This document shows, piece by piece, positions 4,583-26,110 of a stretch of DNA of 34,296 bases. Source of the stretch: Solirubrobacterales bacterium. GTDB lineage: Bacteria; Actinomycetota; Thermoleophilia; Solirubrobacterales; Solirubrobacteraceae. The position numbers and the translations under genes were made by a program. The stretch is taken from positions 1 through 34,296 of the forward strand of contig JAFASQ010000140.1 of assembly GCA_019244395.1 (NCBI GenBank), read 5' to 3'. The stretch's first letter is position 1; every line of letters starts with the position of its first letter. Below the pieces are notes generated by a model. The model was not told the origin of the DNA and did no database searches. It saw only the letters and a program-made list of their open reading frames with translations.

Positions 4583-7500
4583 ATGTCCCGACGTATCGTT
4601 CCCCCAGGGGCCAATGGCCTCTACGACCCCGCCAACGAGCGGGATGGCTGCGGCATCGCGCTGGTGGCCAAGCTGTGGGGCGAGGCCAGCCACGCGGTGG
4701 TGGAGAAGGCGCTCGATGCGCTCGGGAACCTGGAGCATCGCGGGGCCGAGGGCGCCGATCCGAACACCGGTGACGGCGCCGGCATCCTGCTGCAGATCCC
4801 CGACGGCTTCCTGAGGGCGGCCGTCGCCGGCGTCGAGCTGCCCCCGGCCGGCCGTTACGGCGTGGGAGTCTGCTACCTGCCCACCGACCCGGAGCGGCGG
4901 GCGGTGCTCGAACGGCTGATCGAGGAGACGATCGAGGCCGAGGGCCAGCGGGCACTCTGGTGGCGCGACGTGCCGGTCGACGACCGCCACGTGGGCGACA
5001 CGGCGCGCCTGTCGGCGCCGGTCATCCGCCAGGTGCTGATCGGAGCGGGGGAAGACATCGCCGACCAGGCAACGTTCGAGCGCAAGCTGTACGTGATCCG
5101 GCGGGTGATCGAGCGGGCGGCGGGGCGCGATCTGGCCCTGCCGAGCTTCAGCAGCCGGACCATGATCTACAAGGGGATGCTGACCGCGCCGCAGCTCCCG
5201 CGGTACTTCACGGATCTGAGGGATCCCCGAGTGGCGTCGCGGCTGGCGCTCGTGCACTCGCGCTTCTCGACCAACACGTTCCCGAGCTGGGAGCTGGCCC
5301 ACCCGTACCGGATGATCGCCCACAACGGCGAGGTCAACACGCTGCGCGGCAACGTCAACTGGATGCGCGCGCGCGAGTCCCAGCTCGCCTCCGAGCTGTT
5401 CGGCGAGGATCTTGAGAAGGTGATCCCGGTGGTCCGCGAGGGCGGCTCGGACTCGGCCATCTTCGACAACGTGCTCGAGTTGCTCGTGCTGAGCGGGCGC
5501 TCGATCCCGCACGCGGTGATGATGATGGTGCCCGAGGCCTACCGGACGCGCAGGGATCTCGATCCGGACGTCAAGGGCTTCTACGACTTCCACTCCTGCC
5601 TGATGGAACCGTGGGACGGGCCGGCGGCGGTGGTGTTCACCGACGGGCGTGTGGCCGGCGCCGTCCTCGACCGCAACGGGCTGCGGCCGGGCCGCTGGAT
5701 TCAGGACACCGAGGGCTACGTCGTCCTGGCCTCGGAGACCGGGGTGATGACGGTGGCGCCCGAGCATGTGCAGCGCAAGGGCCGCCTGGCCCCCGGCAAG
5801 GTGTTCCTGGTCGACCTCGAGGAAGGCAAGATCGTTGCGGACGAGGACGTCAAGCGCCGGGTGGCTCGCCGCCAACCCTACGGTGCGTGGTACGAGCGCT
5901 CGGTCGTGCACATCGATGACCTCCCCGAGCGCGATCCGCGCACGCCGCGGATCGAGCCGCTGCGCTCAAAGCAGCTGGCCTTCGGCTACTCCCAGGAGGA
6001 CCTGCGGCTGATCATCGCGCCGATGGCCACCAAAGGCGAGGAGCCCGTGGCCAGCATGGGCAACGACGCCGCCCTGGCCGTGATGTCCGACCGCCAGCCG
6101 CCGCTGTTCGCGTACTTCAAGCAGCTGTTCGCGCAGGTGACCAATCCGCCGATCGACCCGATCCGTGAGTCCGTGGTGATGTCACTGCAGGCCGGCGTGG
6201 GCGCCGAGGTGAACCTGCTGCACGAGAGCCCCGAGCAGGCCCACCAGCTGGTCATGGACCAACCGATCCTGCGCAACCACGAGCTCGAGAAGCTCCGCCA
6301 GGTGTCGCACGAGATCTTCGATGCGGCCACGCTCGACATCACATGGCCGATCGAGCAGGGACATCCGGGGATGGAGGCGCGGCTCGAGGCGCTGTGCGAG
6401 GAGGCCGCCCGCTACGTCGACAACGGGGCCAACATCCTGATCCTGTCCGACCGCAACCTGGGCGCCGAACGGGTGGCCATGCCCTCGCTGCTGGCCGTGG
6501 CGGCCGTCCACCACCATCTGGTCCGACGGGGCACGCGCCTGCGCACCGGGCTGGTGATCGAGTCCGGCGAGCCGCGCGACATCCACCACATGGCGACGCT
6601 GATCGGCTACGGCGCGGCGGCCATCAACCCGTACGTGATGTTCGAGTCGCTCGACGAACTGGCCGACCGATCCCTGCTCCCGGTCGATCTCACGCGCGAG
6701 GAGGCGGAGAAGCGGATCGTCAAGGCGATCGGCAAGGGCCTGATGAAGACGATCTCGAAAATGGGGATCTCGACCATCCAGTCCTACTGCGGGGCGCAGA
6801 TCTTCGAGGCGGTGGGGCTCGAGCGCGAGCTGATCGACAAGCACTTCACGGGCACGGCGTCGCGGATCGGCGGGGTCGGGCTCGAGCAGCTCGCGCAGGA
6901 GGCGATCGAACGCCACTTCCGGGCCTATCCCCGCACCGAGCGCGAGGTGCTCCCGGTCGGCGGCGTGCTCCAGTGGCGCCGTCACGGCGAGCTCCACGTG
7001 TGGAACCCCGACACGATCGCCACCCTCCAGCACGCGGTGCAGGGGGTCAACGGAGACCCACGCGAGACCTACGCCGAGTACGCCCGCATGGCCAACGAGG
7101 AGTCGGTGCGCCGGGGGCTGTTGCGCGGGCTGATGACATTCCGGGCGGCGGGCGAGCCGGTCCGAATCGAGGAGGTCGAGCCCGCCACCCGGATCGTCAA
7201 GCGCTTCACCACCGGCGCGATGAGCCTCGGCGCGCTCGGCCGCGAGGCGCACGAGACGCTGGCCATCGCGATGAACCGGCTGGGCGCGCGCTCCAACACG
7301 GGCGAGGGCGGCGAGGACGCCTCGCGCTATACGTCCGATCCAAACGGCGATTCGAGACGTTCGGCGATCAAGCAGGTGGCGTCGGGACGGTTCGGCGTCA
7401 CGATCCACTACCTGGTCAACGCCGATCAGCTCCAGATCAAGATGGCCCAGGGGGCCAAGCCGGGGGAGGGTGGCCAACTGCCGGGGCACAAGGTCGACGG

Positions 7501-9184
7501 GTACATCGCGTGGCTGCGCAACTCGACGCCGGGCGTGGGGCTGATCTCGCCGCCGCCCCACCACGACATCTACTCGATCGAGGACCTCAAGCAGCTGATC
7601 TACGACCTGCGCTGTGCCAACCCGACGGGCTCGGTGTCGGTGAAGTTGGTCAGCGAGGTCGGGGTGGGCACGGTGGCGGCCGGCGTGGCCAAGGCCAACG
7701 CCGACCACGTCACGATTGCCGGCCACGACGGCGGCACCGGCGCCTCGCCGCAGTCCTCGATCCAGGGGGCCGGCGTGCCGTGGGAGATCGGGCTGGCCGA
7801 GACCCAGCAGACGCTGCTCCTCAACGACTTGCGCTCCCGGATCGTGGTCGAGGTGGACGGCGGGATGCGTACCGGGCGCGACGTGGTGGTGGCCGCGCTG
7901 CTGGGCGCCGACGAATTCGGGTTCTCGACCGCGCCGCTGATCGCGATGGGCTGCATCATGATGCGCGTCTGCCACCTGAACACCTGCCCGGTGGGGATCG
8001 CCACGCAGGATCCGGAGCTCCGCCGGCGCTTCCGCGGCACGCCCGAGCAGGTGGTCAACTACCTGATGCTGGTGGCCGAGGAGGTGCGTGAGATCATGGC
8101 CTCGCTCGGCGTGCGGCATTTCGAGGACATGATCGGACGGACCGAGCTGCTCGACTCCGACCGGGCGATCGACCACTGGAAGGCCGGCCGGGTTGATCTG
8201 TCGATGGTGCTCCAGCCACCCGACCTGCCGGCGGGGACGCCGCGCTGCCGGACGCGGCCGCAGCAGCCGGTGCTCGACGATGCCTTGGACTGGGAGCTCG
8301 TGCGGCGGTGCACGCCGGCGTTGGAGGGTCGCGACGGGGTGAAGCTGGGCCCGATCCCGGTGAGGAATGTGAACAGGACCGTTGGCGGGATTCTGAGCGG
8401 TGAGATCGCGCGCCGGCATGGCGCCGGCGGGCTACCCGAGGGCACGATCGAGATCTCGTTCACCGGTTCGGCCGGCCAGAGCTTCGCGGCGTGGCTGGCG
8501 CCGGGCGTGACGTTCTCGCTGCGCGGCGAGACCAACGACTACGCCGGTAAGGGCCTGTCCGGCGGCGTGGTCTCGGTCCGCCCGCCCGAGAAGCACCGCT
8601 TCCGGGCCGAGGAGAACATGATCGTCGGTAACACCGTGCTGTACGGCGCCACGGCCGGACGGGCGTTCTTCCGCGGGCTGGCCGGCGAGCGGTTCGCCGT
8701 GCGGAACTCGGGCGCCTGCGCCGTGGTCGAGGGGGTGGGCGACCACGGGTGCGAGTACATGACCGGCGGGCGGGTGGTCGTGCTCGGCCGGACCGGCCGG
8801 AACTTCGCGGCCGGGATGAGCGGGGGGATCGCCTACGTATGGGACGTCGACCGGCGCTTCGAGGGTCGGTGCAATCTCGAGCTGGTCGACCTGGAGGAAC
8901 TGTCGGCGGCCGATGAGACCGAGGTGCGGGACCTGATCGCCGAGCACGTGGCGCGCACCGGCTCACTGGTGGCGCGCAACGTCCTGGCCTCGTGGGACCG
9001 GGGCACGCGCGATCGGTTCCTCAAGGTGATGCCGCGGGACTACAAGCGGGCGCTGGCCGAGGCGGTGGCGCGAGCCGAGGCGGGGGCGCGCAACGAGGTA
9101 GGGGCGCGCAACGAGGGAGGGGCGGGAGACGAGGCGGGGGCGCGAGGCGAGGCGGGGTCGCGCGGCGAGGCCGTCGAGGCGTAG
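4583..9184 (+). CDS. gltB: Glutamate synthase (NADPH) large subunit
   Basis: Converts glutamine and 2-oxoglutarate into two glutamates, with the small subunit supplying electrons. It has 1533 residues with the full domain order. The N-terminal class II amidotransferase has nucleophile Cys23 ([12 protein letters not shown]), exposed after removal of a propeptide. A central domain spans about 460-740 and the FMN-binding synthase domain about 800-1190. The latter carries the 3Fe-4S cysteines Cys1124, Cys1130 and Cys1135 (C-x5-C-x4-C). The beta-helix GXGXG domain runs about 1260-1440. The ATG at 4583 places the propeptide at the usual length. No Shine-Dalgarno sequence is present. The last 40 residues are a Gly/Ala/Glu/Arg hexapeptide repeat not normal for the family. 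gltD follows after 6 bases. Confidence 0.97.
9077..9166 (+). repeat. 18-bp tandem repeat in the 3' end of gltB
   Basis: Five consecutive 18-bp units, each beginning GAGG, run in phase with the gltB frame, followed by a partial sixth to the stop codon. The units encode [24 protein letters not shown] and EAGSRG, then EAVEA. The first two units differ at only two positions; later ones diverge more. Confidence 0.9.
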
Positions 9185-9190
9185 GTTTCG

Positions 9191-10765
9191 GTGGGCGAGC
9201 TCGGGGCGTTCCTCAAGATCCAGCGGGTCGGCTTCGACAAGCGCGACCCGCGGCAGCGCGTGCGCGACTACAAGCAGTACTTCGGGTTGCAGCCGGAGCT
9301 CGAGCTACGCCGGCAGGGGGCGCGGTGCATGGACTGCGGCATCCCGTTCTGCCACGAGGGATGTCCGCTCGGCAACCTGATCCCCGAGTGGAACGACCTC
9401 GTCTACCGGGGCAAGTGGCGCGAGGCGATCGACCAGCTGCACGCCACCAACAACTTCCCCGAGTTCACCGGGCGCATCTGCCCTGCGCCGTGCGAGTCCG
9501 CCTGCGTGCTGAACATCAACGACGACCCGGTGACGATCGAGCAGATCGAGATGGCGATCGCGGAGCGGGCGTTCGAGGAGGGCTGGGTCGTTCCCGATCC
9601 GCCTTCGCGGCGCACGGGCAAGCGGGTCGCCGTGATCGGGTCGGGTCCGGCGGGTCTGGCCGCGGCCGACGAGCTCAACCGGTGCGGCCACGCCGTCACG
9701 GTGTACGAGCGCGATGAGGGGCCCGGCGGCATGTTGCGCTTCGGCGTGCCCGACGCCAAGCTCGAGAAGCGGATCATCGACCGGCGCGTGGCGATCCTCA
9801 GGCAGGAGGGGATCGAGTTCGCCTACAACGTCCACGTCGGCCGGACTGTCTCGGCCGACGAGATCAGGGAGCGATACGACGCGGTGGTGGTGGCGATCGG
9901 CTCGCGCGTGCAGCGCGACCTCGAGGCGCCGGGACGTGAGCTGCGCGGGATCCATCCCGCCATGGACTACCTGTACCAGCGCAACCGCTGGGTGGCCGCC
10001 CGCGAAGGCCGCCGGTTCAAGGCGCCGGCGCCCGGGACCGAGATCACCGCCGCCGGCAAGCGAGTGATCGTGGTGGGCGGCGGCGACACCGGGATGGACT
10101 GCATCTCGAACTCGCACCGCGAGGGCGCGCGGACGGTGGTCCTGCTCGACGTGTACGCGGCGCTCCCTCCGGGTGGCCGCGACCCTCGCCATCCGTGGCC
10201 GCTCCCGGCGAAGCGGACGCTCACGACCTACGCACTCGACGAGGGAGGCAAACGGCGCTGGGGAACCGAGGTCACCGGCTTCGGGGGCCGCGACGGACGG
10301 GTCAGCCACGTGTACGCGCGGCAGGTCACCGGGTCCTCCTCGCGCGACCTGACACCGGTGCCGGGGAGCGAGTTCGTGCTCGAGGCCGACCTGGTGCTGA
10401 TCGCGATCGGGTTCTCCGGTCCAGAGCGCGCGGGGGCGGTCGAGCAGCTGGGCCTGGAACTCGACCGGCGGGGCAACATCCGCACCGAGCAGACCTACCG
10501 CAGCTCGACCACCGGCGTCTACGCCTGCGGAGATGCGCGGATCGGCCAGTCGCTGGTGGTGACCGCGATCGCTGAAGGACGCAAGTGTGCCCGGGTGGTC
10601 AACAAGGACCTGGGCGGGAGCCCCATGGATGCCGATCGGGAGATGCTGGCGATCGGCGCCTGGAGCGGAGAGGCCGATCGGACCCTCCGCCACGAGGCCG
10701 AGGCCGCGGGGACGGTGCGGGCCGGCGAGGAGTTCTTCACCGGGCCGGGCGCCGAGGGCCGGTGA
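9191..10765 (+). CDS. gltD: Glutamate synthase small subunit (NADPH-dependent)
   Basis: Oxidises NADPH and passes electrons through FAD and iron-sulfur clusters to GltB. It has 524 residues. N-terminal cluster cysteines are Cys46, 49, 54 and 58, with a second set Cys97, 101 and 105 (CPAPCESAC). An FAD-binding GSGPAG motif lies near residue 150, with TVYERDEGPGGMLRFGVP after it. An NADPH-binding GGGDTGMDC motif lies near residue 295, and the C-terminal FAD contact GVYACGDARIGQSLVVTAIAEGR is divergent only slightly from the family. The start is GTG at 9191, 6 bases after gltB, since the encoded GELGAFLKIQRV matches the family N-terminus. It is somewhat longer than usual because of a C-terminal tail of about 45 residues. 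Confidence 0.96.
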   Translation: MGELGAFLKIQRVGFDKRDPRQRVRDYKQYFGLQPELELRRQGARCMDCGIPFCHEGCPLGNLIPEWNDLVYRGKWREAIDQLHATNNFPEFTGRICPAPCESACVLNINDDPVTIEQIEMAIAERAFEEGWVVPDPPSRRTGKRVAVIGSGPAGLAAADELNRCGHAVTVYERDEGPGGMLRFGVPDAKLEKRIIDRRVAILRQEGIEFAYNVHVGRTVSADEIRERYDAVVVAIGSRVQRDLEAPGRELRGIHPAMDYLYQRNRWVAAREGRRFKAPAPGTEITAAGKRVIVVGGGDTGMDCISNSHREGARTVVLLDVYAALPPGGRDPRHPWPLPAKRTLTTYALDEGGKRRWGTEVTGFGGRDGRVSHVYARQVTGSSSRDLTPVPGSEFVLEADLVLIAIGFSGPERAGAVEQLGLELDRRGNIRTEQTYRSSTTGVYACGDARIGQSLVVTAIAEGRKCARVVNKDLGGSPMDADREMLAIGAWSGEADRTLRHEAEAAGTVRAGEEFFTGPGAEGR

Positions 10766-10836
10766 CTGCTCCACCATCCCGGTTGTAAACCAACGGCGCG
10801 CGAGGCCTATGTTTTACCGCCGCTGAGCAGGGGAAT

Positions 10837-11004
10837 GGTAAGCTCGTTCACACGGATTCGCGTGGTGGCGCGGCCTGCGGACTAAGTTTTAGTTTACGGA
10901 AAGCTTGGGACGGGGAAACTCGCCCCTGTCGGTCAGGGAACTGCGCCCCCACTTCCCTGACTCTCCGGGGGGCCCAGATGGATCTGGGCCCCCCGGGTCT
11001 TTTA
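10837..11004 (+). ncRNA. Candidate structured RNA or attenuated leader between gltD and a membrane gene
   Basis: Several inverted repeats follow each other. AAGCT near 10839 can pair with AGCTT near 10902. ACTAA/TTAGT sits around 10880. GACGGGG can pair with CCCC-T-GTC at about 10910-10930, with a one-base bulge. GTCAGGGAA (10932-10940) pairs exactly with TTCCCTGAC (10953-10961) around a C-rich 12-base loop. A strong terminator follows at once. A weak promoter may lie upstream (TTGTAA 10783, TATGTT 10808, 19-bp spacing). The C-rich loop next to a terminator recalls the actinobacterial 6C RNA, but only one loop clearly has a C run, so I do not assign it. It could be a small RNA or a cis-acting leader; boundaries are approximate. 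Confidence 0.4.
10965..11004 (+). terminator. Intrinsic terminator, perfect 15-bp stem
   Basis: CCGGGGGGCCCAGAT (10965-10979) and ATCTGGGCCCCCCGG (10982-10996) are exact reverse complements separated by two bases. A T-rich run, TCTTTT, follows at 10998-11003. It may end the gltBD transcript or the upstream RNA. It lies only 9 bases before the next ATG, so the downstream gene needs readthrough or a start within this region. Confidence 0.8.
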
Positions 11005-11012
11005 ATTGGTCC

Positions 11013-12059
11013 ATGCCTGCGGTGCCGGCAGCGGCGGTCTCGAGTGCCCATCACTCCTCGATCGCCTCCACGGTCCAGAGTCTCACCTCGTCGATCGGGA
11101 CGTTTTTCTCGCAGCTGGCCAGTCTGAGCTGGGGGGCGCTGCTCCTCGGCCTGGCCCTGTACGGGGTGTACCTGCTCCTGCGCTCGCGCGCGCTGTGGGG
11201 TGCGTTGCGAGCCGCGTACCCGGGCGTGGAGATCCGATGGCGCGACGTGTGGGGCGCGTACATGGTCGCCTACGGCATCAACAACGTGTTCCCGCTCGGT
11301 GGCGGGAGCGTGGCCCAGCTCTTCCTGACGCGGCTGGCGATTCCGCCGAGCACCTATCCGACCGTCGCCGCAGCGCTGAGCACGGGCGTGATCTTCGACT
11401 GGTTCATGGGGCTGCTCATCATGTGCTTCGCGTTCACGCAGGGCGTGTTCCCCAAGCCGCCGGACTTCTCGAAGCTCCCCGCCTTCGACATCAGCTTCTT
11501 CGCCTCGAACATGCGCTTCACCCTGTTCTTGCTGACGCTGGCCGGCGTGGGCTTCATGGTTGCCTTTGCGCTGCTCTCGGCGCGGGTCAAGGCGTTCTGG
11601 GCGCGCGTGCGGCAGGGATTCACGATCCTGCGTGATTTCCCGCGTTACCGCCGTGAGATGGCGAGCTGGCAGTTCGCGAGCTGGGTGGCGCGGTTCGCCG
11701 CCTATTGGGCGCTACTCGATGCGTTCCACATCGGGGGGTCCGTGCGCAACGCGTTGCTCGTGCTCGCCGTGCAGGTGGTGGCGTCGGTGTTCCCGTTCAC
11801 GCCCGGGGGCGCCGGGGTCCAGCAGGCGCTGCTGGTGACGATCTTCGCTGGGAGCGGCTACGTCGCGTCGTTCTCGGTCGGCCAGCAGATCGCCACCGCG
11901 GCATTGACCACCGCGTGCGGGTTCGCCGCGCTCGTGCTCATCTTCCGCTTTCGGAGCTTCCGTGAGGTGATCGAGCGGGGGAAGGCCCACCGACGGGGGG
12001 AGGGCGGGACGGTCGAGGCGACGGTGGAGCGGGGCGAGGACGTGCCGGCGCGCGCCTGA
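11013..12059 (+). CDS. Integral membrane protein, lysylphosphatidylglycerol synthase TM / YbhN-like (flippase-like) family
   Basis: Polytopic membrane protein of 348 residues with about seven to eight hydrophobic segments. Family marks are the GINNVFPLGGGSVAQLFLTR segment (about residues 88-107) and the PFTPGGAGVQQALL segment (about 263-276). The latter corresponds to the conserved P-G-G-x-G motif of the LPG_synthase_TM/UPF0104 group. Members are membrane-embedded parts of lipid-modifying enzymes or putative lipid carriers; no catalytic soluble domain is fused here, so the role is open. The frame is open further upstream but runs through the terminator hairpin, so ATG 11013 (or GTG 11022) is the likely start. 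No Shine-Dalgarno sequence is visible. The C-terminus is basic and charged. Confidence 0.82.
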   Translation: MPAVPAAAVSSAHHSSIASTVQSLTSSIGTFFSQLASLSWGALLLGLALYGVYLLLRSRALWGALRAAYPGVEIRWRDVWGAYMVAYGINNVFPLGGGSVAQLFLTRLAIPPSTYPTVAAALSTGVIFDWFMGLLIMCFAFTQGVFPKPPDFSKLPAFDISFFASNMRFTLFLLTLAGVGFMVAFALLSARVKAFWARVRQGFTILRDFPRYRREMASWQFASWVARFAAYWALLDAFHIGGSVRNALLVLAVQVVASVFPFTPGGAGVQQALLVTIFAGSGYVASFSVGQQIATAALTTACGFAALVLIFRFRSFREVIERGKAHRRGEGGTVEATVERGEDVPARA

Positions 12060-12093
12060 GCGGTTCGGCGTGTGCTCGGAGGGATGGCCGTGC

Positions 12094-12123
12094 TTGACGG
12101 GTTCGGCGCGCGCTTGTTACGGT
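12094..12123 (+). promoter_or_regulatory. Promoter of the flavin monooxygenase gene, leaderless type
   Basis: TTGACG at 12094-12099 and TACGGT at 12118-12123 are separated by 18 bp. The ATG at 12131 begins 8 bases after the -10 box, where transcription should start, so the mRNA would have no leader. Confidence 0.55.
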
Positions 12124-12130
12124 CGCGGCG

Positions 12131-13519
12131 ATGACGGCCCTACCGAGCGCGTGCGTGATCGGGGCCGGGTCGTCGGGCATCGCGGCGCTCAAGGCGCTGG
12201 CGGAGCGGGGGATCCCGGTCGAGTGCTTCGAGAAGTCCGACCGGGTGGGCGGCAACTGGGTCTTCGCCAACAAGACCGGCATGTCGTCGGCCTACCGCTC
12301 GCTGCACACGAACACCTCGCGCGAGCGCATGGCGTACTCGGACTTCCCGATGCCGCAGTCCTATCCGGACTTCCCGCACCACACGCAGATGGCGCAGTAC
12401 TTCTCCGACTACGTGCGGAGGTTCGGCCTGGAGCGGTTGATCTCCTTCGACACCGGCGTCTCGCACGCCGCCCGCGATCCCGACGGGGTGTGGAGCGTGG
12501 AACTCGACACGGGAGAGACCCGGCGCTACGACGCGCTGCTGGTGGCCAACGGGCACCACTGGGACCCGCTCTGGCCGGAGCCGCCGTATCCGGGGCAGTT
12601 CGACGGCGTCGAGATCCACTCCCATCACTTCGTCGACGCCGCCGACTTTCGCGATCGAAACGTGCTCGTCGTGGGGATGGGCAACAGCGCGCTCGATATC
12701 GCGGTCGAGGCGAGCTTCGCGGCCGGCAAGACGTTCGTATCCTCGCGGCGCGGCGCCCACGTGCTGCCCAAGTACGCGCTGGGCCGCCCGATCGATCAGA
12801 TCGCGGCGAGTCCCCTGTCGCCGCTCGTGCCGTTCGGTGTCCGGCATGCGCTGTTCCGAGCGATCTATCGCCTGGTCGTGGGGCGGGTAGAGCGCTACGG
12901 CCTGCCCAAGCCCGACCACCGGCTGCTCGAATCGCATCCCTCGCTGTCGGCCGATTTCCTCGGTCGGGTCGCGCAGGGCGAGATCACCTGGAAGCCGGGC
13001 ATCAGCTCGCTGGCCGGGGACCGGGTGCGGTTCGTGGACGGCAGCGTCGAGCCGGTCGAGGTGATCGTGTGGTGCACCGGCTACCAGGTGAGCTTCCCGT
13101 TCTTCGACGAGGACTTCATATCGGCGCCCGACAACGAGCTTTTGCTCTACCGGCGCGTGTTTAAACCCGGCGTGGACAACCTGTTCTTCATCGCGCTGCT
13201 CCAGCCGCTCGGGCCGACCATGCCGCTCGCCGAGGCGCAGGGCCGGTGGATCGCGGCGTATCTGCGCGGCGAGTACCACCTGCCGTCGCGCCCGGAGATG
13301 GAGGCGGACATGCGACGCGAGCGCGAACGCCGGCGCCGGCGCTACGTGGCCTCCAAGCGGCACACGATGGAGGTCGATTTCGACGACTACCTGTTCTGGC
13401 TGCGGCGGGAGATTGCGGCCGGGGCGCGGCGCGCCCGCGCCGCCGCCTTCCGCCTGCCGGTGGCGGCCCAGGCATCTGCGCTGCCGGGCGCAGCGGGCAC
13501 CGGGGGTGCGGTCGGTTGA
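12131..13519 (+). CDS. Flavin-containing monooxygenase (FMO-like, NAD(P)H dependent)
   Basis: Oxygenates a soft nucleophile (N or S) or carries out a Baeyer-Villiger type reaction using FAD and NADPH. It has 462 residues. FAD motif GAGSSG is at residues 11-16, with ECFEKSDRVGGNW just after. The FMO fingerprint F-x-G-x3-H-x3-F is at residues 157-167. The NADPH-binding GMGNSALD is at 182-189. The conserved CTGY lies near residue 317. The C-terminal 100 residues are Arg/Ala-rich. No Shine-Dalgarno sequence is present; a good promoter sits directly before the ATG. The substrate is unknown. The next gene, sulfate activation, begins 37 bases on, which makes a sulfur-containing substrate possible but not shown. 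Confidence 0.88.
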   Translation: MTALPSACVIGAGSSGIAALKALAERGIPVECFEKSDRVGGNWVFANKTGMSSAYRSLHTNTSRERMAYSDFPMPQSYPDFPHHTQMAQYFSDYVRRFGLERLISFDTGVSHAARDPDGVWSVELDTGETRRYDALLVANGHHWDPLWPEPPYPGQFDGVEIHSHHFVDAADFRDRNVLVVGMGNSALDIAVEASFAAGKTFVSSRRGAHVLPKYALGRPIDQIAASPLSPLVPFGVRHALFRAIYRLVVGRVERYGLPKPDHRLLESHPSLSADFLGRVAQGEITWKPGISSLAGDRVRFVDGSVEPVEVIVWCTGYQVSFPFFDEDFISAPDNELLLYRRVFKPGVDNLFFIALLQPLGPTMPLAEAQGRWIAAYLRGEYHLPSRPEMEADMRRERERRRRRYVASKRHTMEVDFDDYLFWLRREIAAGARRARAAAFRLPVAAQASALPGAAGTGGAVG

Positions 13520-13521
13520 AC

Positions 13522-13550
13522 TTCTGCCTATCCGTGCCCTGCGCTACGGT
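13522..13550 (+). promoter_or_regulatory. Possible leaderless promoter of cysNC
   Basis: TTCTGC (13522-13527) and TACGGT (13545-13550) are 17 bp apart, and the GTG start at 13557 lies 6 bases after the -10. The sequence TACGGTCGC is identical to that before the preceding monooxygenase gene. Confidence 0.35.
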
Positions 13551-13556
13551 CGCCCG

Positions 13557-15572
13557 GTGATTTCCAGCGGAGATGAAAAGATCTTCACGGCGGCGGGCAC
13601 CGCCGTGGCGACCGGGCTCGCGCAGTCGTCGGCCGGCGCGATGCTCCGCCTGGTCATCACCGGATCGGTGGACGACGGCAAGAGCACGCTGATCGGCCGG
13701 CTCCTGTACGACACCAAGCAGATCCTCGCCGACCAGCTCGAGGCGCTGCGCACGGCGTCCGAGCGCCGCAACGGGGGGCGGGGGCTCGATCTCTCACTGC
13801 TCACCGACGGGCTCCGGGCCGAACGCGAGCAGGGCATCACGATCGACGTCGCCTACCGGTACTTCCAGACCCCCCATCGCAAGTTCATCATCGCCGACAC
13901 ACCGGGCCACGAGCGCTACACGCGCAACATGGTCACCGGCGCCTCCACGGGCGACCTCGCGGTGATCCTGATCGACGCGCGCAAGGGGGTGGTCGAGCAG
14001 ACGCGCCGTCATGCGTTCATCGCCTCGCTGCTCGGGATCAGGCACCTCGTCGTGTGCGTCAACAAGATGGACCTGGTCGATTACGCCCAGGCACGCTTCG
14101 AGCAGGTCGAGCAGGACTTCCGCGAGTTCTGTGCCCGCCTGGAGACGACAGACGTGACCTTCATCCCGATGTCGGCCGTGAGCGGCGAGAATGTGGTCGA
14201 GCGCTCCGAGCACATGGACTGGTATCAGGGGCCGGCGCTCCTCTATCACCTCGAGCACGTCCATATCGCTTCGGACCGCAACCTGATCGACTGCCGGTTG
14301 CCCGTGCAGTGGGTGATCAGGCCCGGGCATGCCTCCGGACAGGGGGCCGGGCCGGCGGAGTGGCCGGGCGCCGGGCTGGGCGCGGAGCCAGGCCGGGGCG
14401 ATGGCCATCGCCATTACCGGGGATACGCGGGCCAGATTGCCGCCGGGGTGTTCCGGGCCGGTGATCCCGTGCTCGTGCTCCCGTCGGGGGAGGAGACGCG
14501 GGTCGCGTCGGTGGAAAGCTTCGACGGCTCGCTTCCGGAGGCCTGCGCGCCGATGTCGATCGCGCTGCGGCTCGACGACGACCTCGACATCTCGCGCGGG
14601 GACATGATCTGCCGCCCGCACAACCGGCCCACGGTCGACAGCCACATCGAGGCGATCGTGTGCTGGATGGCGGACGAGCCCGTCGCGAACGGCCGCGTGT
14701 ACGCGATCAAGCACACCACGCGCTCGGCCCGCGCGGTAGTGGAGGAAGTGCGCTACCGGATCGACGTCAACACGTTGCATCGCGACGAGAACGCGCGCCA
14801 GCTTGCCCTGAACGACATCGGCCGCGTGAGGCTGCGCACGACGGTGCCGCTGATCTTCGATGAGTACCGGCGCAACCGCACCACCGGGAGCTTCATCCTG
14901 ATCGACGAGGCGACCAACGGCACGGTGGGCGCGGGAATGATCATCGAGGCGCACATGGGGCCGGCTTCGGCCGAGGGCACGGAGGTCACCTGGGACTCAA
15001 GGCGGCTCGCCCGCGCGGCGCGCTGGTCCCTGGTCGGCCAGCGCGGCGCGACCGTGTGGCTGACCGGTTTGCCGGCGTCCGGCAAGTCGACGATCGCCGG
15101 GGCCCTGGAGGAGCGCCTCGCCCGCGACGGCTACCGCGCCTACCGGCTCGACGGGGACAACCTGCGGTACGGGTTGAACAGCGATCTGGGGTTCGAGCCG
15201 GGCGATCGGGCGGAGAACATCCGGCGGGTGGCGCATGTGGCCAGCCTGTTCGCGGACGCGGGCACGATCGCGATCGTCAGCGTGATCAGCCCGTACGCGG
15301 TGGACCGCCAGCTGGCCCGCAGCATCCACGACCGGGGTGAGCTCGAGTTCCTCGAGGTGTTCGTCGACACCCCGCTCGAGGAGTGCGAGCGCCGCGACCC
15401 CAAGGGTCTGTACGCCCGGGCGCGGGACGGCAAGATCCGCGGTTTCACCGGCGTCGACGCTCCATACGAGGCGCCGCGGAACGCCGATGTGGAGCTTCGC
15501 CCGTGTGAGGAGCCGATCGAGGAGCTGACCCAGCGGCTGGTGGCCGAGCTGCGGGCGCGGGGCGTGGTGTAG
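13557..15572 (+). CDS. cysNC: Bifunctional sulfate adenylyltransferase GTPase subunit / adenylylsulfate kinase
   Basis: Sulfate activation. The CysN part is the GTPase that drives APS synthesis with CysD; the CysC part phosphorylates APS to PAPS. CysN spans about residues 28-470 with G1 GSVDDGKST, G3 DTPGH and G4 NKMD motifs. CysC spans about 480-671 with P-loop GLPASGKST, LDGDNLRYGLN, ENIRRVAHVASLFADAG, ISPYAVDRQLAR and KGLYARARDGKIRGFTG. GTG 13557 is chosen because upstream codons overlap the monooxygenase frame; ATG 13641 is the alternative. It is odd in two ways. A Gly/Pro-rich insert of about 28 residues (257-284) sits between VIRP and HYRGYAG in the CysN beta-barrel. Also, cysD is not adjacent, although it usually precedes cysN. 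Confidence 0.93.
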   Translation: MISSGDEKIFTAAGTAVATGLAQSSAGAMLRLVITGSVDDGKSTLIGRLLYDTKQILADQLEALRTASERRNGGRGLDLSLLTDGLRAEREQGITIDVAYRYFQTPHRKFIIADTPGHERYTRNMVTGASTGDLAVILIDARKGVVEQTRRHAFIASLLGIRHLVVCVNKMDLVDYAQARFEQVEQDFREFCARLETTDVTFIPMSAVSGENVVERSEHMDWYQGPALLYHLEHVHIASDRNLIDCRLPVQWVIRPGHASGQGAGPAEWPGAGLGAEPGRGDGHRHYRGYAGQIAAGVFRAGDPVLVLPSGEETRVASVESFDGSLPEACAPMSIALRLDDDLDISRGDMICRPHNRPTVDSHIEAIVCWMADEPVANGRVYAIKHTTRSARAVVEEVRYRIDVNTLHRDENARQLALNDIGRVRLRTTVPLIFDEYRRNRTTGSFILIDEATNGTVGAGMIIEAHMGPASAEGTEVTWDSRRLARAARWSLVGQRGATVWLTGLPASGKSTIAGALEERLARDGYRAYRLDGDNLRYGLNSDLGFEPGDRAENIRRVAHVASLFADAGTIAIVSVISPYAVDRQLARSIHDRGELEFLEVFVDTPLEECERRDPKGLYARARDGKIRGFTGVDAPYEAPRNADVELRPCEEPIEELTQRLVAELRARGVV

Positions 15573-15604
15573 GCGCGGGCGGGGACCGGTTCCCGCGCGG
15601 ATCG

Positions 15605-16552
15605 TTATCCGGCGATCGGGCCGAGCGACGGTGTGCGGCCGTAGGTGCTGAACGCGCGGAAACGCGAAAACAGACGGTGCGCGGGGCCGTGGAAGTCCGA
15701 GGATCCGGTGCTCAGCAGGTCGAGCTCGGCGCAGCGGTCGGCCAGGACCTCGGCCTGCTCGCGGGTGTGGGTGGCATAGAAGCACTCGACGCCATCGAGG
15801 CCCGATGCGCGGAAGCGGTCGATCGCCTCCAACACCTCATCGGCGGCCTCGACGTCCCAGAACGGATGGGCCCAGACGGCGAGGCCGCCGGCGCCGTGGA
15901 TGGTCTCGATCGACTCGGCGATGGTGGGCTTGGTCCGGGGCCGGAAGGCGGGCCGGCCGTCGATCAGGTAGGCCTCGAGGAAGGCCGAGCGCTCGGCCAG
16001 TCCCTCCGACTCGAGGCGCCCGCGGTTGGCGGAATGCCGTACGACGGCATCGGCCAGGTGCGGGCGCCCAATCGGTTTGCCCTCGGCTCGCCGGCTTGCC
16101 AGCTCAGTCTCGTCGAGCTCATAGCCAAGCTCGCGCAGGGCATCGGCCATCGCGTCAGCGCGGTGCTCGCGGTCCTGGCGCCAGGCGGCGAGGCGCTCAC
16201 GGAGCAGGCGGTCGCGGTCATCGACTAGATAGCCGAGCACATGCAGGTCCTGCTGCTCGCCGTCCACCGAGGAGATCTCGACCGCGGGGACCAGCCTGAT
16301 CCCGACCTCGGTCGCGGCGTGGGTGGCGGAAGCCACCCCGTCGACGGTGTCGTGGTCGCTCAGCGCGAGCAGCTCGACCCCGGCCTCGGCGGCTGCGCTC
16401 ACCACGCCCCTCGGGTCAAGCGAGCCGTCGGAGTGCAGCGAGTGGCTTTGCAGATCGAAGGTGGGCGGTTGGGCGCTCAAGCGCCGAGAGGCTAGTGGCT
16501 GCCCGCGCGTCGCGCGCCGCAAGCTGGGCCGCGCGCGGACCGGGAGCGGCAC
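15605..16552 (-). CDS. PHP-domain metal-dependent phosphoesterase (RNase AM / TrpH-like)
   Basis: Metal-dependent hydrolase of the PHP superfamily, probably acting on nucleoside phosphates or RNA ends. The metal-ligand motifs are clear: DLQSHSLHSDGSL, ALSDHDTVDG, PAVEISSV, HVLGYLVD, GGLAVWAHPF, and C-terminal STGSSDFHG. From GTG 16552 the protein has 315 residues, but the first 24 are Arg-rich and not part of the fold. A TTG at 16480, just before SAQPPTFDLQSHS, would give a more typical N-terminus of 291 residues. The start is therefore uncertain. It is convergent with cysNC and divergent from the Zn-motif protein. The exact substrate cannot be read from the sequence. Confidence 0.85.
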   Translation of the reverse strand: MPLPVRARPSLRRATRGQPLASRRLSAQPPTFDLQSHSLHSDGSLDPRGVVSAAAEAGVELLALSDHDTVDGVASATHAATEVGIRLVPAVEISSVDGEQQDLHVLGYLVDDRDRLLRERLAAWRQDREHRADAMADALRELGYELDETELASRRAEGKPIGRPHLADAVVRHSANRGRLESEGLAERSAFLEAYLIDGRPAFRPRTKPTIAESIETIHGAGGLAVWAHPFWDVEAADEVLEAIDRFRASGLDGVECFYATHTREQAEVLADRCAELDLLSTGSSDFHGPAHRLFSRFRAFSTYGRTPSLGPIAG

Positions 16553-25828: not shown

Positions 25829-25850
25829 GGTCCCGGCCGGGGACTGAATC

Positions 25851-26069
25851 TCAGGCGGTACGCCGCAGCTCACGCCCGAGGTCGATCGCGCGGATCTCGT
25901 GCTCGCCGGGAAGCTTGGCCAAGACGGCCGCGACGACCTGTTTGACGTCGCGCTCCTCGTGACCGAGGTCGTCGAACAGCGACTTCAGCGCGGTGTGCAC
26001 GATCTTCAGCTGCGCCGCGGTCAGCTCGAGCCGGAAGGCCGTCTCGTCGGGCCGAATCAATTCGTTCAC
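25851..26069 (-). CDS. Small unknown protein
   Basis: 72 residues from GTG 26069 (85 from TTG 26108). I do not recognise it. It looks helical and charged: FRLELTAAQLKIVHTALKSL, then DLGHEERDVKQVVAAVLAKL and IRAIDLGRELRR. A helical bundle is plausible. The gap to the WS/DGAT stop on the same strand is about 41 bp, so it may be co-transcribed with it. No ribosome site is clear for either start. It is convergent with the Fe-S assembly gene. Confidence 0.6.
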   Translation of the reverse strand: MNELIRPDETAFRLELTAAQLKIVHTALKSLFDDLGHEERDVKQVVAAVLAKLPGEHEIRAIDLGRELRRTA

Positions 26070-26110
26070 AGCAGCCGGAACGCTAGCCGTTTGCAGGGAA
26101 AACGGCAAGC

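What the first reader, a model, noticed from the sequence alone, without database searches (positions are those of the whole stretch)
10837..11012. Tandem hairpins and a perfect terminator 9 bases before a membrane-protein gene
A 9-bp perfect hairpin with a C-rich loop (10932-10961) and a 15-bp perfect stem with T-run (10965-11003) follow one another directly. Only 9 bases separate the T-run from the ATG at 11013. Strong U-tailed terminators are unusual in such GC-rich genomes. Either this is a small RNA gene with 6C-like features, or a riboswitch or attenuator controlling the membrane protein.
Basis: partly seen in the sequence, partly recalled or inferred. Interest (0 to 1): 0.6.

Follow-up and report, generated by a model that had tools for sequence, protein, structure and literature searches.

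The report
Conserved C-loop small RNA after gltBD
Behind the glutamate-synthase genes of a group of soil Actinobacteria lies a strongly conserved, previously uncatalogued RNA made of three hairpins, one with an almost unchanging run of cytosines in its loop, which probably is a small regulatory RNA that pairs with G-rich stretches of messenger RNAs.

Summary
The hairpins are real and where stated: P2 10932-10961, P3 10964-10997 with a TCTTTT tail, nine bases before ATG 11013. A third hairpin, P1, lies at 10909-10930. Together they are a conserved RNA, found in 25 of 28 genomes of the window's genus (Solirubrobacterales) and, with different stems, behind gltD in all 6 gltD-bearing genomes (of 7 searched) of a second genus. 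P2 and P3 covary: 38 cells changed on both sides, shuffles 9.8, slid controls 0-3. The C-rich P2 loop is near-invariant. gltD lies directly upstream in 23 of 25 genus genomes; in two the contig ends there. The downstream gene is of three kinds, so a riboswitch or attenuator for the membrane protein is unlikely. No Rfam family reaches its cut-off; 6C membership fails. An extended -10 motif (10836-10844) suggests a transcript of its own, about 150 nt. The T-run is not conserved, while hairpin P3 is. Best reading: a gltBD-linked sRNA working like mycobacterial 6C/B11, its C-rich loop pairing with G-rich mRNA sites. Transcription and targets are untested. A second C-rich hairpin RNA exists in the genus.

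The parts
4583..9184 (+). gltB (large subunit of glutamate synthase), upstream operon gene; name taken from the finding and general knowledge
   Evidence: open frame of 1533 aa; homologues in the same order in relatives
9191..10765 (+). gltD (small subunit of glutamate synthase), the gene that always precedes the RNA
   Evidence: open frame of 524 aa; directly upstream of the RNA in 23 of 25 genus genomes
10836..10844 (+). extended -10 promoter-like motif TGGTAAGCT (TGNTANNNT); predicted start of the RNA near 10851 (inferred)
   Evidence: motif in 16 of 30 loci against mean 2.2, maximum 7 in 1000 shuffles
10909..10930 (+). hairpin P1
   Evidence: fold of the region and of relatives
10932..10961 (+). 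hairpin P2 with the near-invariant C-rich loop (TGCGCCCCCACTT at 10942-10954), the proposed pairing site
   Evidence: alignment and pair counts
10964..10997 (+). hairpin P3, stem of the terminator, loop AUGGAU
10998..11003 (+). tail TCTTTT, which makes P3 a standard intrinsic terminator in this genome
   Evidence: TTTT follows P3 in only 5 of 25 rows of alignment A1 (by eye)
11013..12059 (+). membrane-protein gene behind the RNA (LPG_synthase_TM, PF03706); a neighbour, not part of the RNA
   Evidence: Pfam match 65.2 bits; not conserved as the downstream gene

Best explanation
It is a small non-coding RNA gene, or the stable processed 3' end of the gltBD transcript, of about 150 nt, that has stayed with gltD in two genera of Solirubrobacterales. 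It probably starts from an extended -10 promoter at 10836-10844 and ends at hairpin P3, which in this genome also ends the gltBD transcript. Its active part is the C-rich loop of P2, which pairs with short G-rich stretches, such as Shine-Dalgarno regions, of other mRNAs and lowers or changes their translation, as mycobacterial 6C/B11 does. P1 and P3 give stability. Its level probably follows nitrogen assimilation. Shown: structure, covariation, near-invariant loop, linkage to gltD. Inferred: transcription, promoter, end points, action in trans, targets and the link to nitrogen.
For: Found in 25 of 28 genus genomes. P2 and P3 covary, 98.8% of cells paired, 38 cells changed on both sides, shuffles 9.8, slid controls 0-3. 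Core on average 89% identical to the window in 20 relatives against 79% for the 3' end of gltD and 56% for the 60 bases before the core. TGCGCCCCCACTT kept in 24 of 25 rows (by eye). The six gltD-bearing genomes of genus g22 keep three hairpins and a C-rich P2 loop with other stems. Promoter-like motif in 16 of 30 loci. Exact 24-base pattern found only in Solirubrobacterales, 27 stretches. Mycobacterial B11 represses through C-rich loops (passages of PMC10470900).
Against: No expression data. No target found: the exact complement of the loop occurs nowhere as a candidate target in 28 genomes, and duplex energies with 17 gene starts of the window are about as in shuffles. The promoter-like motif is missing in 14 of 30 loci, and the sigma-70 scan found no promoter in 6000-16000. 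One genus genome with gltD lacks the RNA (G016). A loop can also be kept by a binding protein.
Confidence: 0.58

Rival explanations
1. A structured 3' end of the gltBD mRNA only: the hairpins end transcription and shield the mRNA from exonucleases, with no action in trans.
For: Always behind gltD on the same strand; P3 with TCTTTT is a good terminator in the window.
Against: A terminator needs neither a near-invariant C-rich loop in a second hairpin nor covariation in it; the T-run is not conserved although P3 is; divergent copies with the same loop lie away from gltD (L023, L025).
Confidence: 0.25
2. A CsrA-binding RNA: the P3 loop AUGGAU (ANGGA) holds CsrA.
For: GGA of the P3 loop is invariant in 25 of 25 rows; CsrA is encoded in 26 of 28 genus genomes and 7 of 7 g22 genomes.
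Against: Only one conserved GGA loop per RNA; two of six g22 RNAs (G194, G199) have lost GGA although their genomes keep CsrA; it does not explain the C-rich loop.
Confidence: 0.07
3. A riboswitch or attenuator that controls the membrane-protein gene.
For: In the window P3 ends nine bases before the ATG.
Against: The downstream gene is the membrane protein in only 12 of 25 genus genomes, an FMO-like gene in 3, a third kind in 6, unresolved in 4; no riboswitch family matches; no alternative antiterminator pairing was seen among the conserved pairs (which counts only the named pairs).
Confidence: 0.04
4. A target RNA of ANTAR proteins, with the P3 hexaloop AUGGAU as one recognition loop.
For: AUGGAU has A at position 1 and G at position 4; one distant relative (L086) lies beside two GAF-ANTAR genes.
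Against: The family has two such hexaloops (passages of PMC3369931); the P2 loop CGCCCC has neither base, and two g22 P3 loops lose G4.
Confidence: 0.03

Closest known systems
6C / B11 sRNA (Rfam RF01066) of mycobacteria and other Actinobacteria
   Same: Small structured RNA with a C-run exposed in a hairpin loop; likely to pair with G tracts near translation starts, as shown for B11 and eccB4 (passages of PMC10470900).
   Different: No match to the 6C model; one C-rich loop, not two; extra hairpin P1; linked to gltBD.
gltD motif (SRC-18-1), candidate riboswitch of Selenomonadales and Veillonellales
   Same: Structured RNA next to gltD.
   Different: That motif lies directly upstream of gltD (passages of PMC8632094); this one lies downstream and in another phylum. 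No sequence comparison was made.
sRNAs made at the 3' end of nitrogen genes, such as GlnZ behind glnA of enterobacteria (recalled, no call)
   Same: Would be encoded at the 3' end of a nitrogen-assimilation gene and use its terminator.
   Different: No sequence relation tested; here a promoter of its own is suggested.
BjrC68 (Rfam RF02353), Bradyrhizobiaceae sRNA
   Same: Two hairpins, the second a terminator; best Rfam score here, 27.3 bits.
   Different: Below its cut-off of 39 bits; other phylum; the likeness rests on the two-hairpin shape.

Membership tests
6C RNA (RF01066) | score at or above the curated cut-off (47 bits) | tested here: not met
   no match at E up to 10 in the region; 0 of 28 genus genomes over the cut-off
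6C RNA (RF01066) | two hairpins with C-rich loops (two loops in B11) | tested here: not met
   only P2 has a C-rich loop; P1 and P3 do not
6C RNA (RF01066) | pairs with G-rich mRNA sites | not testable with these tools
   needs experiments; no target found
ANTAR-target RNA | two hairpins with hexaloops that have A at 1 and G at 4 | tested here: not met
   P3 loop fits in the genus, P2 loop CGCCCC does not; passages of PMC3369931
CsrA-sequestering sRNA | several GGA motifs in loops (recalled) | tested here: not met
   one conserved GGA loop, lost in 2 of 6 g22 RNAs
Intrinsic terminator | G+C-rich stem followed by a T-run | tested here: met
   met in the window; the T-run is not kept in most relatives (5 of 25 with TTTT, by eye)
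Riboswitch or attenuator of the downstream gene | constant association with that gene | tested here: not met
   three kinds of downstream gene
BjrC68 (RF02353) | score at or above the curated cut-off (39 bits) | tested here: not met
   27.3 bits
trans-acting sRNA | separate stable transcript and a target | not testable with these tools
   only indirect support: motif in 16 of 30 loci, covariation

The most novel reading that the evidence does not exclude
Solirubrobacterales carry a small network of C-rich-loop sRNAs. The gltBD-linked one reports nitrogen assimilation to many G-rich mRNAs; a second one, behind a wax-ester-synthase gene, reports lipid storage. Both arose apart from 6C, which would make C-rich-loop control a recurrent solution in Actinobacteria.
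Probability: 0.25. Interest if true: 0.68.

Novelty: new variant of a known kind. Interest (0 to 1): 0.52.

Why it matters
It is a covariation-supported RNA family absent from Rfam 15, in a soil lineage for which a literature search (Conexibacter with sRNA) returned only two papers, each with one or two mentions of these words. It ties a central nitrogen-assimilation operon to a loop of the type that controls mRNAs in mycobacteria. It can be tested in a cultured Conexibacter. It also shows a terminator hairpin whose stem is kept by selection although its T-run is not.

Tried and rejected
Rfam on the window and region: nothing above cut-off; related loci the same. 6C: rejected as membership; its best genus hit (L185) is an array of similar inverted repeats. 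CsrA: motif and gene are both there, but GGA is lost in two genomes that keep CsrA. ANTAR: only one of two needed loops.

Targets: the exact complement of the loop (14 bases) was searched in 28 genomes. Of 30 places listed, 28 are the RNA itself; the other two (L212, L220) lie in what reads as coding sequence with the same sense as the RNA, so they are not targets. Duplex energies with 17 gene starts of the window: one of 17 was lower than nearly all its 100 shuffles, about what chance gives.

Viral contigs: no match. A P3-only model (R2) found mostly the same RNAs, their reverse strands, the second RNA type and some unrelated hairpins. Loop GATGGATC is not general to strong hairpins: 15 of 60 distinct hairpins with stems of 12 or more in 325,819 held bases carry it, all of them in these RNAs or the second type (overlapping loci and loci picked for these RNAs were included, so this is no random sample).

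Dropped before counts: L022 (copy of L037 at a contig end) and L025 were left out of alignment A1, which holds 25 of 27 sequences from 23 genomes, among them the divergent extra copies L023 and L024. P1 was left out of the pair count because its pairing differs between relatives. The g22 sequences are not in A1. Six of the 26 fetched loci were left out of the identity count, which used 20.

Full report
What is there. The window is contig C460 of genome G000, genus g1. gltD ends at 10765; the RNA region follows; the membrane-protein gene (LPG_synthase_TM, PF03706) starts at 11013. The two hairpins of the finding are exactly where stated. A third hairpin, P1, precedes them, and the region folds far better than shuffles (z -4.15).

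Conservation. A DNA search found the core in 23 of 41 genomes, all in the same genus. Covariance model R1, built on 25 sequences, found it in 25 of 28 genus genomes. In a sample of 151 genomes of the order it matched 13: ten of the genus and three of another genus of the family, g22. In 20 relatives the core is on average 89% identical to the window, against 79% for the 3' end of gltD and 56% for the 60 bases before the core; the core is the more conserved in 17 of 20, the exceptions being the three most distant.

Covariation. For P2 and P3 (24 pairs, 600 cells) 98.8% of cells pair. Ten pairs and 38 cells show changes on both sides, against 5.1 and 9.8 in 500 shuffles (none as high) and 0-3 in structures slid by 1-3 columns. 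The number of further pair types is not exceptional (22 against 20.1; 64 of 500 shuffles as high). The structure was derived from these sequences, so the sliding control favours it somewhat, and the sequences are related.

A second genus. In g22, R1 matched 5 of 7 genomes, E 5.1e-6 to 3.3e-4. Six of the seven have a gltD match. Read behind gltD, all six show the hairpins, with a C-rich P2 loop of the form GTCTCCCCCRCG (by eye). The stems there are quite different, so structure, C-rich loop and place behind gltD outlast the sequence. The P3 loop is AUGGAU or AAGGAU in four, AUGCAU in G199 and AUGUUU in G194. Genus genome G016 and a genome of genus g54 (G173) have gltD but no such RNA; G015 and G042, the other two genus genomes without a match, are incomplete.

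Context. gltD lies directly upstream on the same strand in 23 of 25 genus genomes (window; 20 loci; G041 and G043). In the other two, G014 and G018, the contig ends within 200 bases upstream of the RNA. The gene behind it is the membrane protein in 12 genomes, an FMO-like protein in 3, a third kind in 6, and unresolved in 4 (tallied by hand). The RNA thus goes with gltD, not with the membrane protein.

Promoter and end. TGNTANNNT occurs in the 130 bases upstream in 16 of 30 loci, against a mean of 2.2 and a maximum of 7 in 1000 shuffles of single letters. The loci are related, so these are not 16 independent cases. In the window it is TGGTAAGCT at 10836-10844, which would start an RNA of about 150 nt. 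The six g22 sequences have TANNNT shortly before P1 (by eye). The sigma-70 scan, which needs a -35 element, found none in 6000-16000. The T-run is present in the window, but TTTT follows P3 in only 5 of 25 rows (by eye).

What it is not. No Rfam family reaches its cut-off in the window or in eight related loci. At E up to 10 the best is BjrC68 with 27.3 of 39 bits. 6C fails on score and on the second C-rich loop. CsrA genes are present in 26 of 28 genus genomes and 7 of 7 g22 genomes, but the single GGA loop is lost in two that keep CsrA. ANTAR-target RNAs have two A1/G4 hexaloops (passages of PMC3369931).

How it most likely works. The feature that changes least is the C-rich loop of P2. In M. 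abscessus the sRNA B11 (6C) represses eccB4 through its C-rich loops, and the eccB4 5' UTR has a tract of six G (passages of PMC10470900). The same chemistry is the simplest account here. It predicts short G-rich targets, in line with the absence of a long complement. That the targets concern nitrogen metabolism is a guess from the place behind gltBD. A processed 3' end of gltBD mRNA could act in the same way; the data do not decide between the two origins.

A second RNA type. Scans with R1 and R2 led to a further RNA in the same genus: an outer CCGCCC/GGGCGG stem, a C-rich loop, then a long terminator-like hairpin. In four of the five loci used for its model a wax ester synthase/DGAT gene precedes it, and in four a FeS_assembly_P gene converges with it. 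Its model R3 matches eight genomes at E below 1e-7 and four more at 1e-5 to 5e-4. Its terminator loop varies. It has no Rfam match at E up to 0.5. In the window the matching interval (25829-26110) shows no such hairpin (by eye). Divergent relatives of the first type occur at four other places, by CheB, 3-hydroxyacyl-CoA dehydrogenase and a sigma factor, PaaX, and GAF-ANTAR genes; two of these (L023, L025) keep the loop exactly.

Verdict. Function rests on inference. Literature searches were made; I saw their listings and passages of three papers. None of what I saw described this RNA.

Noticed in passing
L182:3064-3166, L183:4938-5042, L184:2026-2129, L174:4031-4137, L177:1589-1694: A second conserved RNA type in the same genus, with a C-rich loop and a long terminator-like hairpin, mostly behind a wax ester synthase/DGAT gene; no Rfam match.
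   Followed up: partly
L023:4027-4123, L024:1870-1976, L025:3961-4056, L086:2801-2904: Divergent copies of the first RNA away from gltD, beside CheB, 3-hydroxyacyl-CoA dehydrogenase/sigma factor, PaaX and GAF-ANTAR genes.
   Followed up: partly
G000:C131:13533-13691 (own genome, outside the window): CsrA genes are present in nearly all genomes of both genera of these Actinobacteria (26 of 28 and 7 of 7).
   Followed up: no
window 10998-11013: The tail TTTTAATTGGTCCATG holds TTTAAT six bases before the ATG and no clear Shine-Dalgarno sequence, so the membrane gene might be transcribed without a leader from a -10 that overlaps the terminator tail.
   Followed up: no
L022 and L037 (G017:C76 and G017:C176): Two contigs of one assembly end inside the same copy of the RNA and overlap there, as if the assembler had met a repeat or strain variants at this place.
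   Followed up: no
L185:1481-1643: The best 6C-model match in the genus (40 bits) is an array of similar inverted repeats rather than a 6C RNA.
   Followed up: partly
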